Source of the DNA: Thysanoteuthis rhombus | Lineage: Eukaryota > Mollusca > Cephalopoda > Oegopsida > Thysanoteuthidae | Reading direction: 5' to 3' | Assembly (NCBI GenBank): GCA_963457665.1 | Contig: OY735202.1 | Span: 50,208,281 to 50,272,280 of the forward strand | DNA: 64,000 bases | In this document: piece after piece, positions 17,358 to 35,918 of the stretch | Layout of the letters: each line of letters starts with the position of its first letter | Position numbering within the stretch: position 1 is the stretch's first letter | Notes under the pieces: generated by a model | The model's input: only the letters and a program-made list of their open reading frames with translations | What the model was told of the DNA's origin: nothing | The model's database searches: none | Translations under genes and position numbers: made by a program

Positions 17358-18801
17358 CTTTTATCTATAATTGTAGCAGAATACTATGGATGGAATAGAT
17401 TCAGCAGTAGATACATCATTTTGTAGACTGGCCCCTAAAGTAGCTTTTTTATTATTACTCTAGTGAAGTAGCTAAAGGCCATGGTAATGGTCCCAAAGAG
17501 TGAAATAGTGCTTCTTTCAATGTAAGATTGTGGGATTATGATGTTTTAATGATTTTGTCAAATATTGCTCTATTAGCTTTCAATATCACTGTTTTATCTT
17601 TATATCTTATTTCTTATTTCATGCACATTGAAAGGAACATTACTTTTCATCATATAATGCCTTAATCTGTTTAAGCCATGTAAATTTCATAATAAATTGT
17701 TTACTGTAGATATTCGGAATTTCAGGGCAACCTGCATGTGCTTGCATAATGAAAAAACAAAGTAAAGGAAATAGAAATTAAAAATTAAAACAATTTTTTC
17801 AAAAATAGATATTTTGTAATTCACCAAGTGGGTGTAATTTCCTCTCATTTCTCAACTTTATGGATGTAAAAATGAAACCTTATTTGTATGTGACAATCTA
17901 TCAGTCCTCCTCCAGCTCAACCCCCATCCATTAGGGGTAATATTGACCTCATTGAGAATCACTGGTTTAAAGTATTACTGTCTAAACAGAGCCTAATCTT
18001 TTGAACAGATAATGATGCTGGTACTTATTACATTATTGAATAACGATAAAAAAAAAATATCTATTACTTTTCTATCTGTGTATTTTTATTATGAAATTAT
18101 TTGCAACAATACATACAGTGAATGATTCTAATGATGGAGTTGACAAATATTATCTGTGTCTGTGACTTGTGGCCAAAACTAAGCAATTATGAGTATTGGA
18201 TGATGATGAGGAGGAGAAAGATGATAAATATTGTCCATATAGCAGAAAAGAAAAAATGGTGACACATTATTGGTGAATGCAACCAACTGGCTTAAAGAGA
18301 AGATTAAAAACATGTGTTTGAATGAAGCCAATGATTTACTGGGAATAGTGCAAATTAATTGAATTTGACCATATATACTAAGGATAGACACAATACCCTC
18401 TTCAATTCAGAAGATTAGATTGAGTTGTTGTACATGAGAAGAGAAAAATATAGTAATTTTATCTATTCCAGCAGACTTGGCTCAAAAGCTTCAAAAATGT
18501 AGAATGTAAGAGAAGTAAATTCATCTTTCATCATTGAAGCACTTGGACAGTCTCAAAGATCTACACAAAGGAATTGGAAGAGTTAGAACTGCAAAGGAAA
18601 ATTCGAACAGTGTAGTGAATAGTGTGAAGAGTACTGAAAATTTGAAGATGCTTACAGTCACTTAATAGCCAGAATAGTTACCTGATACTTCAGTTGTGAA
18701 AACACAATGATGAAAATAAACACCTTTTTTTAAATGTAATGCCATGATTTTTTTCTTGAAATAAGCACAGGTCTTTTCATCATTTTTTTTCTATTTTACA
18801 G
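17358..18801. other. No exon recognised; contains a partial SINE-like unit at about 18165-18400
   Basis: 18165-18400 (TGTGGCCAAAACTAAGCAAT, GATGATGAGGAGGAGAAAGA, GATTTACTGGGAAT) resembles 27425-27640. The rest is AT-rich and holds no recognisable upstream receptor exon. Confidence 0.5.
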
Positions 18802-19123
18802 GAAGCAGACATCATTGTAGGTTCCCTCTCTGTAACAACTGAAAGGGAAGCAGTGGTTGACTTCACTTTGCCATACTATGACTTTGCAGGGATCCAGATT
18901 TTATTCAAGGATGATGAGAAAGATGATGATCTTTTCTCATTCATGACGGTCTTTCACTGGGATGTTTGGCTATGCCTTGTAGCTGTACTCCTTACAACAA
19001 GCATCTTGCTGCACGTCTTTGATCGTCTCAGTCCATTCTCGGGTAAAGATCAATTGCAAAACCAGAGAGTTTTTAATATGAAGGAAAGCATGTGGTTTGT
19101 TATTGGATCCCTAACCCAATCAG
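18802..19123 (+). CDS. Ir25a-like: Ionotropic receptor (IR25-like), exon with end of S1, M1 and pore loop
   Basis: This internal exon begins after a polypyrimidine tract and AG at 18800-18801 and ends at CAG before GTAAGAT at 19124. It reads in phase 0 from GAA and ends with one base of a split glycine codon. The 107 complete codons cover the end of ligand-binding lobe S1, with SVTTEREAVVDF: Arg at 18844-18846 is the residue that binds the ligand carboxylate in this family. M1 follows at about residues 54-73, then the start of the re-entrant pore loop (MWFVIGSLTQS). The protein is a ligand-gated cation-channel subunit of the plasma membrane. The GSLTQSGGGEPP wording, completed in the next exon, resembles IR25a rather than AMPA or kainate receptors; this comparison is from memory. 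The lineage assignment within the family is less certain than the family itself. Confidence 0.93.
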
Positions 19124-19589
19124 GTAAGATTGCTCGGGTTTTTTATTTTATTTCTGGTACCTAAGTGTGGATTAGTTCTCCTAAGTAGTAGGTTAAGTTT
19201 CTTTTCTTGATTTTGTTGGGAAAAAGAAAAGCAGAAGTTCCCACCTAATGCAGGTGTTGTACAAGTTGGCAAGGTTAGTATAACACGTTTCAGCAAATTA
19301 GACCATATCAAACAATTTGAGATGCTGTAAATCCTCAACGAGATTGATCAGATTAACTTTATTGATTTTTTATGGGTAGCGCTGTGGCCACAACAAAAGA
19401 TCTTAAATTTGGGGATTAGTTTTACAAGTTTTAATTCAATATTAATTATTACGGTTATTTCTTACCAATGGCTTCAAACAGAGAATGCACTCAAAACTTT
19501 CACTTATACAAATTTATATGAGGTATTCATTTACGTTTTAGCTTTGGGATTTTTCAAGTGAAACATTGCTAATTTTAATGAATTTTTGA

Positions 19590-26486: not shown

Positions 26487-26577
26487 GTAGGTTATCCAAT
26501 ATGATATTGTGCGTTTATTTACAATACAGTATGTACACTTCCCTGAAACAATTTGGTGTGTTATTGTTTTCTTACAG

Positions 26578-27142
26578 GAGGAGGAGAACCACCGACTTCT
26601 TTCTCATCCCGTGTGCTTGTTGCAGGCTTTTGGTTCTTCTGTATTATCATGATGTCAACATTCACAGCAAACTTGGCTGCATTTCTCACCGTCAAGAGGA
26701 TCACAAATGAACTGACCTCTTTGGATGACCTTGTAAAATCAAAGATCAGATACTCAGTTATGTCCAACACATCTGTGATGCGCTATTTTGAACGAATGAA
26801 AACGATTGAGGACAAACTTGACACAAGTTGGAAGCAGATGAATTTCCAGGAAGATTCCGATGGAAAACATGAACAAAACCTGGCAGTTTGGCACTACCCC
26901 ATCAGTGAAAAATATGTCACCATATGGAGTAAAATCCAGGAATATGGAATGGTCCAAAACACCACTGAAGCAATTAATAGAGTGAAGGCCGGAAAATTTG
27001 CTTACATAACAGAATCTCCTATCGTACAGTGGTATATGTCGAAGGATTGCAAGTTTACAAGTATTGGAGATCAGTTCAGTTCACGACCTTATGCCTTCGC
27101 CCTGAAACAGAATTCCCCATGGGTTAGTAAATTTTCAAGCAG
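26578..27142 (+). CDS. Ir25a-like: Ionotropic receptor (IR25-like), exon with M3 and S2
   Basis: The exon starts after TTTTCTTACAG and its first two bases complete the glycine codon left open by the previous exon, restoring GGGEPPTSF. It ends at AG before GTAAGTC (27143), leaving two bases of a serine codon. It encodes M3 with the gating motif STFTANLAAFLT, the IR/iGluR equivalent of SYTANLAAF with Phe replacing Tyr. Most of ligand-binding lobe S2 follows, including ERMKTIEDKL and LAVWHYPISEKY, the latter typical of IR25. An NTS near 26766-26774 lies in the region of the family's conserved Ser/Thr contact; exact alignment is uncertain by one or two residues. Glu in ITES at 27012-27014 matches the conserved acidic ligand contact. 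NTS and NTT are potential N-glycosylation sites. A MITE lies 92 bp upstream. Confidence 0.95.
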
Positions 27143-28202
27143 GTAAGTCAATGATTATGTTTGCATATTAATGATTCAACTAGTAGATAGTGGGTGGAGA
27201 AAGGTCACATTGGAGAAGCATTATTTATTTGTTCACAAATTCTTGAGTCAATGAATCGATGAGTAAATTTTTGTATCACTTGAATATTTTAGATTCTGTT
27301 ATTATTCTGAAAGATTATTATGAGAATAGGATGAGGGCTTTACTACGATGTAGCGGTTAACAAGCTGGTTTTTCAGATCATCAACACTGAGTAATGAGTT
27401 CTCTCTAAGTGCTCCATGTTTATGGCATTGTGGCAAAACTAAGCTAAGCTTAGTATATAATCACTATGAGCATTAAATGATGAGGAGGAGAAGGATGATA
27501 TTGCTCAGATGGAGAAAAATATACATTTTATTAGCGAATGTAACATGAAGACAAAGAAATAACATGATTGGATGACTGTAGTGATTTACTGGGAATTTTG
27601 AGAATCACTTGAATTTTACCATGTTAACAAATGTTAAGAGCATAAATCTAAAGCTGTCCTTGAGAACAGGAGAATAAGATACTTAACAAATTTGAAATAT
27701 AGACACAGCATTCTATTCAGTCAGGCACTCCAAAATTGACATATTTTGCTTTGACACTAGATGACATTACTTTGTATGTCTATAGTCTTACAAACACCAA
27801 AAATACAATTTGGTTTTGAAAAATTTATTAAGATAAGATATAATGCAAGGTTGTCATGTATTTTACTTACCATCAATTGTTTTGAAAACTTCAAACATAA
27901 TCCATCGCACCACGTTGATCGAAACATTAATTGGATTTACTTCTTTTATTCAAAGTTTATAAAGTTCCAAAAACACCCAAATGCAATTTGGTTTTTACGA
28001 AGATTCACAGTAAAAGAAAATGCAAAGTAATTACATATTTTACCTTACCGACAACAGTTCTAAAATCATAATTGGATGTTTTAAGAACTTTATGAACAGA
28101 TAATCTATTAATAAAAACTTCTCCATCGCAGACTTCAAATAGTCAAAGATTGAAATTATATTTCATTGATTTTGATTATATTTTCTTGTTTTTGCATTCC
28201 AG
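27143..28202 (+). other. Intron of the receptor gene, with SINE-like unit at 27345-27640
   Basis: The SINE-like unit has a tRNA-like head (GATGTAGCGGTTAACAAGC, then AATGAGTTCTC). Its body shares GATGAGGAGGAGAA and GTGATTTACTGGGAAT with 18165-18400. 27740-28150 contains two similar stretches (CACCAAAAATACAATTTGG and CACCCAAATGCAATTTGG), a diverged local duplication. Confidence 0.6.
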
Positions 28203-33985: not shown

Positions 33986-33989
33986 CATA

Positions 33990-35390
33990 CAGTGCCCCCT
34001 ACTCTGTGTGCGGTTTCTTTTTCCACGGTCTCAGTTACCTGAGGTCAACCCCAGAAATAGCAATTCACAGGTTTTCACTTAATAATGGTCCCAAACCACA
34101 AGAGCAGCGATGCTGACAATTTGGATAAACCAAAGAAAAGCTATAAATTTATTCTTTCAATTGAAAAAGTGAAAGTTCTTGACTTAATAAGCTTGACTGT
34201 GCTAAGGTCAAACTCCCTTGCTTCATTAAAATCTAAAAAGTGAGCAAAACAGAATTCATTTCTCTATACAACATTATTCCAAAACTATATGTCTCATTTC
34301 AACTCCTTTATTAATAGTTCCTATAAATGGGGTTTGCTAACTTTAGCAGAAACAAGCCGGAGTGAATTTGTCATCAGTTTTTTAGTATATAACTGTATCA
34401 CTTTTATTTGTGCATGATGTCACTCATTTTTCTTCTGGTCATAGTCATCCATCATTGTTACATACAAAAGTCAAAATTCATTTGCATGAGTTCAACAAAA
34501 GAAAGAAAGAAAGGCTTACACAGCTTAATGGTTAATCTGCCAGTAGTGTTGAAAGCAACAAAGAATGGAAAGGCCTGCTCAGCCTAATGAATAATCTGCC
34601 ACTGACCTCAAAACCAAGAAAAGTTGTTTTGCTCCGAGTTTGAATTGACCCCAAAATCTACCGATGTCTAGCAGAACGCCCCACACTACTGAGCTACAGA
34701 AGCATTACTGAAAATTGAAATTTATTTGTAATTATAAATGACATGGTCCAACAAATACCTCAAAATCACTGATAAATATCTACTGCCTTTTTATAATTTT
34801 CATATTTTTATTTTGTCTAATGGGTCTGATATTATATTAACTGTTTTAATGACATCCTTAGTAGCAAGGTAATTTTCCCTGAAGAGAAAAATGAATATAT
34901 ATACTTGTTATCATATAAGAATAATATTTTTTTTGTACCAGAAATCCAATATTTGCAGAAAAAAGAATTGAGAGAAACGCAAGTTGACATGACATGAAGT
35001 CATGGAATCAATCTTTCTTTTTCCCTCTCTCTCTCTCTCTTATTCATGTCTAAAATTCTGAAATCTCGAATTCTATATCTAACTTATTGTGATGATAAAG
35101 TCAATTCTCTAGAGGTCTGACAATAAGAAATTAAATTGTTGGCTAAGATCTATGGTAAGAATGAATCTTTTATCTGTCACATAACTTTTATTACAGTATA
35201 TTGCTAAAACTGTTCTAGCCTATAATTTGCTGTTGTTAAACTCTTATTGTGCCTTATTTTTAAAAAAGGCTTTATCAATGGTATGTATGTATAAGAAAAA
35301 CATAGTATATGTAGGGTTCGGTACTATCCACAGTTTTGGCATCCATTGGGGTCTTGTAGCATGTCCCTTTCAGATAAAGGGGGTCTACTG
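33990..35390 (+). mobile_element. pogo/Tigger-type transposon, both ends, disrupted transposase
   Basis: The left end is CAGTGCCCCCTACTC (33990), preceded by TA, then GCGGTTTC, TTTTTCCACGGTCTCAGTTA and CCTGAGGTCAACC. The right end is GATAAAGGGGGTCTACTG (35390), followed by TA. An ATG at 34085 opens MVPNHKSSDADNLDKPKKSY, continuing KFILSIEKVKVLDLI, the start of a Tigger transposase with its CENP-B/psq-type helix-turn-helix. 35130-35170 reads EIKLLAKIYGKNESFIC, the next part of the same domain. Between them lie about 930 bp of unrelated sequence including a SINE-like piece, and the catalytic domain is missing. Ends and ORF start closely resemble mammalian Tigger1/MER2 as I remember them. Confidence 0.82.
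34505..34715 (-). repeat. tRNA-like SINE inserted in the Tigger element
   Basis: On minus, TGTAGCTCAGTAGTGTGGGG resembles a tRNA box A region, and GGTCAATTCAAACTCGG a degenerate box B. Downstream are two similar stretches (GGCTTACACAGCTTAATGG and GGCCTGCTCAGCCTAATGA on plus) that form an internal duplication. Confidence 0.55.
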
Positions 35391-35918
35391 TAATTTAAGA
35401 AAAAGAGATTCTGTTAATAACATTAAAAATTAAAATTTCAGACCTATTTTCTTTATTGTCTAACTTGCAGTTTAAACCAAATTCACTCCAATTCTGATCA
35501 CAAGCCAAAATATTTTTCAGGAGCCAGCTTCTTCATGGTACAGAGGAAGCGCTTTCATTATAATCATGGATAATGTGATCAAACAGTCATTGAAATCAAA
35601 ACTAGATATTTTGAAGCATTTTATCTAAAATTGATCAAAAATCCATATTAATTTTTTTACTACGTAAAGTTGTTTATGATAATGAATTTAATAACATAAC
35701 AATGAATGAAAGTTTATAAAAATTAATGACCAACTGACACCTCAAATTTCAGCAAAGCAGTGTAAAGTTTCTAGCAAATTAATGTAATTTGTGCAAAACC
35801 GTATGAAATAGAGGCCTCTGTCCCACCTTAATCAAAGAGCTCCCACATGCCCATATTTTTTAGAGTATATCTCGAATGGTAAAGATTCAAAACAAAAATC
35901 ATTATTTTTTTAAAAATA

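What the first reader, a model, noticed from the sequence alone, without database searches (positions are those of the whole stretch)
33990..35390. A Tigger/pogo element closely resembling mammalian Tigger1/MER2 in apparently invertebrate DNA
Both ends (CAGTGCCCCCTACTC and GGGGGTCTACTG) are flanked by TA. The subterminal words (TTTCCACGGTCTCAGTTACC, AGGGTTCGGTACTATCC, CATAGTATATGTAGGG) and the ORF start (SSDADNLDKPKKSY, EKVKVLDLI, AKIYGKNES) recall mammalian Tigger1/MER2 at nucleotide as well as protein level. The comparison is from memory. If it holds, vertical descent is hard to reconcile with such similarity and horizontal transfer becomes plausible. This copy is also interrupted by about 930 bp between the two halves of the DNA-binding domain.
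Basis: partly seen in the sequence, partly recalled or inferred. Interest (0 to 1): 0.72.

Follow-up and report, generated by a model that had tools for sequence, protein, structure and literature searches.

The report
Squid transposon nearly matching mammalian Tigger
A squid-like genome carries many decayed copies of a small jumping gene whose ancestral sequence looks almost identical to one remembered from mammals, which points to transfer between very distant animals rather than common descent.

Summary
The feature is real. Window 33990-35390 is a TA-flanked, internally deleted Tigger/pogo element, split by a 936-bp nested host repeat. The host is a mollusc (52 haemocyanin-domain matches), very probably a squid or cuttlefish (reflectin cluster). 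The element is one copy of a dispersed non-autonomous family of about 480 bp: 40 candidates scored per arm, of 403 and 356 loose ones. No mammalian repeat library was available; the comparison rests on sequence recalled and typed, before any other copy was seen. The consensus of 46 rows, with CpG sites inferred from the copies, equals the recalled mammalian MER2-type sequence at 444 of 455 sites; 6 of 407 non-CpG sites differ. Of 21 CpGs inferred from the copies, 20 are recalled ones, 17 of them not visible in the window copy. The host's three nearest intact Tiggers are more distant: 86-87% in the ORF start, 78-80% at the 3' end. Vertical descent cannot plausibly keep non-coding transposon DNA this alike. 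I favour horizontal transfer, direct or through third hosts, direction unknown. A Dfam/Repbase search and a survey of other genomes remain essential.

The parts
33988..33989 (.). TA target-site copy, left
   Evidence: read directly
33990..34191 (+). left arm of the Tigger-derived element: 5' terminal inverted repeat (CAGTGCCCCC...), subterminal words, short leader, start of the transposase frame
   Evidence: 81.8% identical to positions 1-201 of the CpG-aware family consensus; 40 further rows in the genome for 33990-34190
34085..34189 (+). first 35 codons of the transposase frame (MVPNHKSSDADNLDKPKKSYKFILSIEKVKVLDLI), start of the CENP-B-like DNA-binding domain
   Evidence: tblastn 62.9% over 35 aa to the recalled mammalian transposase; the homologous region scores CENP-B_N in related intact proteins of the host; no Pfam hit for the short piece itself
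34192..35127 (.). nested separate host repeat of about 936 bp; AATAAG at 34186-34191 and 35122-35127 may be a target-site copy
   Evidence: 6925 loose candidates, 40 scored, main rows 70-76% identity
35128..35390 (+). right arm: rest of the retained coding stretch (AKIYGKNES...), deletion junction, 3' non-coding end, 3' terminal inverted repeat (...GGGGGTCTACTG)
   Evidence: 35142-35390 is 83.1% identical to positions 228-481 of the CpG-aware family consensus; 39 further places for 35122-35392
35391..35392 (.). TA target-site copy, right
   Evidence: read directly

Best explanation
The feature is a dead copy of a non-autonomous (MITE-like) Tigger/pogo family of about 480 bp. Shown: both Tigger ends, up to about 59 codons of the transposase start, loss of everything from there to the 3' non-coding end, TA flanks, and spread through the genome of a mollusc, very probably a squid or cuttlefish. 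Inferred: it moved by cut-and-paste, using transposase made by an autonomous relative that bound the shared ends and inserted the element at TA. The copies then decayed, and this one was split by a later host repeat. The family's ancestral sequence is, by a partly blind comparison with a recalled sequence, nearly identical to a mammalian MER2-type Tigger, including non-coding DNA. The two lineages therefore shared an ancestor shortly before they spread, which requires horizontal transfer between the squid and mammalian lineages, directly or through other hosts. Direction, date and route are unknown.
For: Ends, TA flanks and coordinates. Family: 40 matches, 40 scored of 403 candidates, for the right arm; 41 rows, 40 scored of 356, for the left. 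Same internal deletion: the recalled transposase matches 24 of the 29 right-arm loci, nowhere beyond residue 60, and 18 of 19 left-arm loci only up to residue 59, the exception being the autonomous L065 (= L054 locus). TA on both sides in 12 of 29 copies, one side in 11, neither in 6. Majority consensus versus recalled pieces: ORF 173/181, 3' end 196/205, 5' end 57/69; 29 differences in 455 sites, 28 of them transitions, 19 at CpGs of the recalled sequence. With CpGs inferred from the copies: 444/455 (5' 65/69, ORF 178/181, 3' 201/205), 6 non-CpG differences of 407, 20 of 21 inferred CpGs among the 23 recalled, and 17 of the 18 that the window copy does not show as CG. At 85 sites where the window copy departs from the consensus, the recalled letters agree with the consensus at 70, the window at 12, neither at 3. 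Host Tiggers L051, L053, L054 differ more: ORF start 85.6-87.2%, 3' end 78.2-80.0%. Host identity.
Against: The mammalian sequence is recalled; no tool here supplied it, and its letters were not found in held papers (0 papers). It was typed with the window copy in view, although most tested sites could not be read from that copy. At the 5' end the raw consensus is nearer to the host's L054 (69/79, 87.3%) than to the recalled piece (57/69, 82.6%); only after CpG inference does the recalled piece reach 94.2%, and L054 was not recomputed that way. No autonomous copy of the same sub-lineage was found: the best transposases are 74, 70 and 69% identical to the recalled core, the next near-full-length one 49%, with fragments of 72-74 residues at 62 and 65% (114 scored of 1224 candidates). 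Other molluscs, fish and mammals could not be searched, so a wide patchy spread with several transfers is not excluded. The consensus rows are those most like the window arms, and two of them (L076, L083) overlap.
Confidence: 0.8

Rival explanations
1. The recalled reference is real but mislabelled: the nearly identical element belongs to some other animal (fish, arthropod, another mollusc), so transfer to or from mammals is not shown; the squid family may have inherited it within molluscs or received it from elsewhere.
For: No call returned a mammalian sequence. Tigger was reported from 325 species, including 8 molluscs, with 2 mollusc species in the mammal-rich cluster B (PMC9219625, first part of the results section).
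Against: The recalled letters predicted sites in the copies that the window does not show, so the recalled sequence itself is genuine.
Confidence: 0.12
2. Vertical descent from the bilaterian ancestor with slow change.
For: Tigger is widespread in animals (PMC9219625, PMC7386202). The host keeps several open DDE_1 transposase frames. PMC8967140 reads cephalopod repeat bursts as mainly vertical (passage).
Against: The stretch includes about 200 bp of 3' non-coding DNA, 196/205 identical to the recalled reference, while the host's own related elements differ there by 20-22% where they align. Copies of the family have themselves drifted (K2P 0.17-0.44; non-CpG 0.10-0.23), so nothing protects the sequence in place.
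Confidence: 0.04
3. Contamination or mis-assembly of mammalian DNA into the squid contig.
For: None found; the likeness to a mammalian repeat alone would raise it.
Against: The copy is split by a repeat with 6925 loose candidates in the genome, relatives lie on many contigs, and the family shares its leader structure with the host's autonomous element L054.
Confidence: 0.01

Closest known systems
Mammalian MER2-type Tigger (human MER2/Tigger group; sequence and label recalled)
   Same: Terminal repeats, subterminal words, transposase start and 3' non-coding end; 444 of 455 compared sites equal in the CpG-aware squid consensus.
   Different: From memory, the mammalian element has a longer 5' leader; the squid family and the squid element L054 have a short one. 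This family lacks the catalytic domain and lives in a mollusc.
Autonomous Tigger L054 (same genome, contig C12)
   Same: TA-flanked, same ends and short leader; CENP-B_N (two stretches), HTH_Tnp_Tc5 and DDE_1.
   Different: 87.3% (5' end), 87.2% (ORF start) and 80.0% (3' end) identical to the family majority consensus, so probably not its direct parent.
Tigger transfers between Eutheria and arthropods (Diaby et al. 2022, PMC9219625; abstract, first part of the results, figure and table section, and passages seen)
   Same: Cross-phylum horizontal transfer of Tigger involving mammals.
   Different: The paper gives Eutheria-arthropod as the only transfer it detected between phyla; molluscs are listed as hosts.
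TcMar-Tigger repeats of cephalopods (PMC8967140, passages seen)
   Same: Tigger-class repeats in cephalopods; Tigger is among the three families with most Dfam hits, and Architeuthis dux the species with most matches overall.
   Different: The passages seen do not single out this family or a mammalian match; hits named there were mostly to aquatic vertebrates, and the authors favour vertical transmission while leaving occasional transfer open.

Membership tests
Tigger (pogo superfamily), non-autonomous derivative | terminal inverted repeats beginning CAGT and TA target-site duplication | tested here: met
   for the window; TA both sides in 12 of 29 copies, one side in 11, neither in 6
Tigger (pogo superfamily), non-autonomous derivative | shares both ends with an autonomous Tigger and lacks its middle | tested here: met
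   L054 aligns to consensus 1-263 and 265-481 with a transposase between; transposase matches in the family stop by residue 60
Tigger (pogo superfamily), non-autonomous derivative | transposase start homologous to a CENP-B-like DNA-binding domain | tested here: met
   tblastn; the homologous region of L053 and L054 passes CENP-B_N, L051 is below the cut-off (19.2 against 21.2 bits); the short window piece and the 39-aa consensus piece gave no Pfam hit
Autonomous Tigger | DDE_1 catalytic domain in an open frame | tested here: not met
   no transposase match beyond residue 35 in the window nor beyond residue 60 in the family loci that matched; this is a non-autonomous element
Mammalian MER2-type Tigger | at least about 80% identity to the family consensus over most of its length (convention recalled) | tested here: inconclusive
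   met against recalled pieces (444/455); no database consensus was available and the full mammalian element was not compared
Mammalian Tigger1 sensu stricto | identity to the Tigger1 consensus | not testable with these tools
   no repeat library; from memory Tigger1 proper has other terminal repeats

The most novel reading that the evidence does not exclude
A marine invertebrate lineage close to squids was the direct or near-direct source of the MER2-type Tigger wave now fossilised in mammalian genomes. The short 5' leader shared by the squid family and the squid autonomous element would then be ancestral, and the longer mammalian leader (recalled) derived.
Probability: 0.12. Interest if true: 0.85.

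Novelty: new member of a known kind. Interest (0 to 1): 0.62.

Why it matters
Part of the human genome consists of Tigger fossils whose outside source, as far as I recall, is not known. A near-identical family in a cephalopod would link a mammalian transposon wave to a marine invertebrate lineage, add a phylum pair beyond the Eutheria-arthropod transfers of PMC9219625, and make origin, date and route testable with existing genomes. A 2018 review counted fewer than 20 documented transfers in mammals in the last 160 million years (PMC5857283, section 9).

Tried and rejected
Vertical descent and contamination were considered and given low odds (see rivals). The idea that the 930-bp interruption belongs to the Tigger was rejected: it is a separate repeat. 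Searches for a copy outside this genome led nowhere: terminal and subterminal letters in papers (0 papers); 17-, 21- and 20-base patterns in viral contigs (0); the 20-mer in genome contigs (0); a degenerate KIYGKNES pattern in viral contigs (2 contigs; the frames near the match in L009 and along L010 show, by eye, no Tigger); the L053 protein in genome contigs and viral contigs (99 and 16 stretches, none a relative by tblastn) and in plasmids and phages (no match); the right arm in plasmids (33 records, short weak matches, best E 0.8); copy L018 in E. coli genomes (no match). These collections are prokaryotic or viral, so the misses say nothing about animals. Rfam gave nothing for the window; for 17 loci it gave 31 matches, all below the gathering scores and mostly to mir-297 and similar families on what look like microsatellites. 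No tRNA was found. Elsewhere in the window no second copy of the family or of the insert was found; only five weak short matches to the consensus (E 0.025-0.087). An age in years was not attempted: no substitution rate for the host was measured. An earlier count said that all 30 loci are the same deleted element; that is too strong, since 5 of the 29 (L016, L023, L032, L037, L040) gave no transposase match there.

Full report
What is there. The element spans window 33990-35390 as reported. TA stands at 33988-33989 and 35391-35392, and the ends read CAGTGCCCCCTACTC and GGGGGTCTACTG. A transposase frame starts at 34085, runs to about 34189 and resumes beyond the interruption with AKIYGKNES. The rest of the transposase, including the catalytic domain, is missing. 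The interruption is 936 bp between two AATAAG words, and it is a separate host repeat: a search of the window's own genome with the whole stretch gave 48 matches (40 scored of 6925 loose candidates); apart from the window itself they all lie within query positions 206-1159, the main rows at 70-76% identity (ends seen).

Host. The window lies in a 2.73-Gb assembly of 514 contigs. Mollusc haemocyanin (PF14830) gives 52 matches. So the host is a mollusc and, taking reflectin as a coleoid cephalopod protein (recalled knowledge), very probably a squid or cuttlefish. The window holds ionotropic glutamate receptor exons (18760-19164, 26547-27146).

Family. The right arm (35122-35392) has 403 loose candidates; 40 were scored and 40 match, the window included. 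The left arm (33990-34190) has 356 candidates, 40 scored and 41 rows, the window included. Of the 29 further right-arm loci cut out, 24 also show a left-arm match at E up to 0.01; L022, L023, L028, L029 and L032 do not. In 17 of the 24 the left match reaches query position 197 or beyond, and in 15 of these the right arm follows after 23-39 bp (the others: L017 directly, L024 after 372 bp). The recalled transposase matches 24 of the 29 right-arm loci, nowhere beyond residue 60; L016, L023, L032, L037 and L040 gave no match. Among the 19 left-arm loci other than the window, 18 match only up to residue 59; the exception, L065, is the same place as the autonomous L054. This is therefore a non-autonomous family, 481 bp by majority consensus. 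TA is seen on both sides in 12 of 29 copies, on one side in 11, on neither in 6.

Comparison with mammals, and how far it can be trusted. No repeat library is among the tools. The raw window arms matched them at 81.5% (65 columns), 82.4% (119), 86.8% (53) and 83.8% (198), each with a score above the best of 200 shuffles. A majority consensus of 29 copies, without the window, matched the recalled ORF piece at 173/181, the 3' piece at 196/205 and the 5' piece at 57/69. Over 455 sites 29 differ: 28 transitions, 19 at CpGs of the recalled sequence. This works as a partly blind test: at 85 sites where the window copy departs from the consensus, the recalled letters agree with the consensus at 70, with the window at 12, with neither at 3; at 357 sites where window and consensus agree, the recalled letters agree at 343.

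CpG test. With 46 rows (29 right-arm and 17 left-arm loci; L077 dropped as the same place as L018, L065 as autonomous, L011 and L064 as the window itself; L076 and L083 overlap and may count one copy twice) I inferred ancestral CpGs from TG/CA mixtures by fixed thresholds. The new majority consensus agrees with the first at 470 of 481 positions. Of 21 inferred CpGs, 20 coincide with the 23 CpGs of the recalled sequence. Identity rises to 444/455 (97.6%), and non-CpG differences are 6 of 407. Only 3 of the 21 sites read CG in the window copy; of the other 18, 17 are in the recalled sequence. So the recalled sequence is a genuine near-twin of this family.

Not simply an old resident. The host has many DDE_1 matches (150, all scored of 604 candidates that were scored up to that number). 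The three nearest to this family, L051, L053 and L054, carry DDE_1 and HTH_Tnp_Tc5, with CENP-B_N over the cut-off in two. They are 85.6-87.2% identical to the majority consensus in the ORF start and 78.2-80.0% at the 3' end, against 95.6% and 95.6% for the recalled pieces; L051 and L053 aligned over only part of the 3' end. The 5' end goes the other way before CpG inference: 87.3% to L054 against 82.6% to the recalled piece; after it the recalled piece stands at 94.2%, and L054 was not recomputed. In a genome-wide search with the recalled transposase core these three stand at 74, 70 and 69%, the next near-full-length match at 49%, and two fragments of 72-74 residues at 65 and 62% (114 scored of 1224 candidates). 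No autonomous parent of this sub-lineage was seen. The squid family and L054 share a short leader, while the mammalian element, as I recall it, has a longer one. That fits a mollusc-side ancestor with a mammalian gain, or a loss on the mollusc side, and cannot be decided here.

Mechanism. Shown: ends, TA flanks, shared deletion, dispersal, decay. K2P to the consensus is 0.17-0.44 for 29 copies in the full-length alignment and, at non-CpG sites in local matches only, 0.10-0.23 with median 0.165 for 46 rows; the second is biased low, and both sets were picked for likeness to the window. Inferred from what is known of pogo elements: transposase made elsewhere bound the ends, excised the element and inserted it at TA. 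The window copy is now a relic, differing from the CpG-aware consensus at 72 of 449 aligned sites and split by a later repeat.

Why transfer. Non-coding transposon DNA is not conserved in place: the copies themselves have drifted. Two ancestral sequences 1.5% apart at non-CpG sites, in hosts separated since the protostome-deuterostome split, need a recent shared ancestor of the elements. Transfer may have been direct or through third hosts. Literature: Diaby et al. 2022 (PMC9219625; abstract, first part of the results, figure and table section and passages seen) list 8 mollusc species with Tigger and give Eutheria-arthropod as the only transfer detected between phyla. PMC8967140 (passages) reports TcMar-Tigger in cephalopods and Dfam hits to it, and favours vertical transmission. 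Searches for Tigger with octopus, cephalopod, mollus, squid or pogo, and for cephalopod with horizontal transfer and DNA transposon (listings), showed no paper whose title or shown abstract start claims a cephalopod-mammal Tigger transfer. Supplements were not readable and most subscription papers are not held.

Limits. Memory supplies the mammalian side; other animal genomes could not be searched; direction and date are open. The verdict is a non-autonomous Tigger family in a squid-like genome, with horizontal transfer as the best explanation of its likeness to a remembered mammalian element.

Noticed in passing
window 34192-35127: Nested repeat of about 936 bp with 6925 loose candidates in the genome (40 scored, main rows 70-76%); it holds an imperfect 54-bp direct repeat at 59-bp spacing and, by eye, a tRNA-like stretch. 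Its class was not determined.
   Followed up: partly
L054 (G000, contig C12), 375-2910: TA-flanked autonomous Tigger whose 699-aa frame holds two CENP-B_N stretches before HTH_Tnp_Tc5 and DDE_1.
   Followed up: partly
L051 (contig C32) and L053 (contig C6): Two further open Tigger transposase frames (594 and 573 aa). Apart from them and L054, the next near-full-length match to the recalled core is 49%; low-copy active elements or domesticated genes are both possible.
   Followed up: no
G000:C25:56607734-56625492: Nine haemocyanin-domain matches with identical scores and open-frame lengths, spaced about 2.18 kb apart: a recent tandem expansion or an assembly effect.
   Followed up: no
G000:C10:22793897-22794496: Three weak reflectin-like matches inside a 1080-aa open frame, away from the main reflectin cluster on C45.
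   Followed up: no
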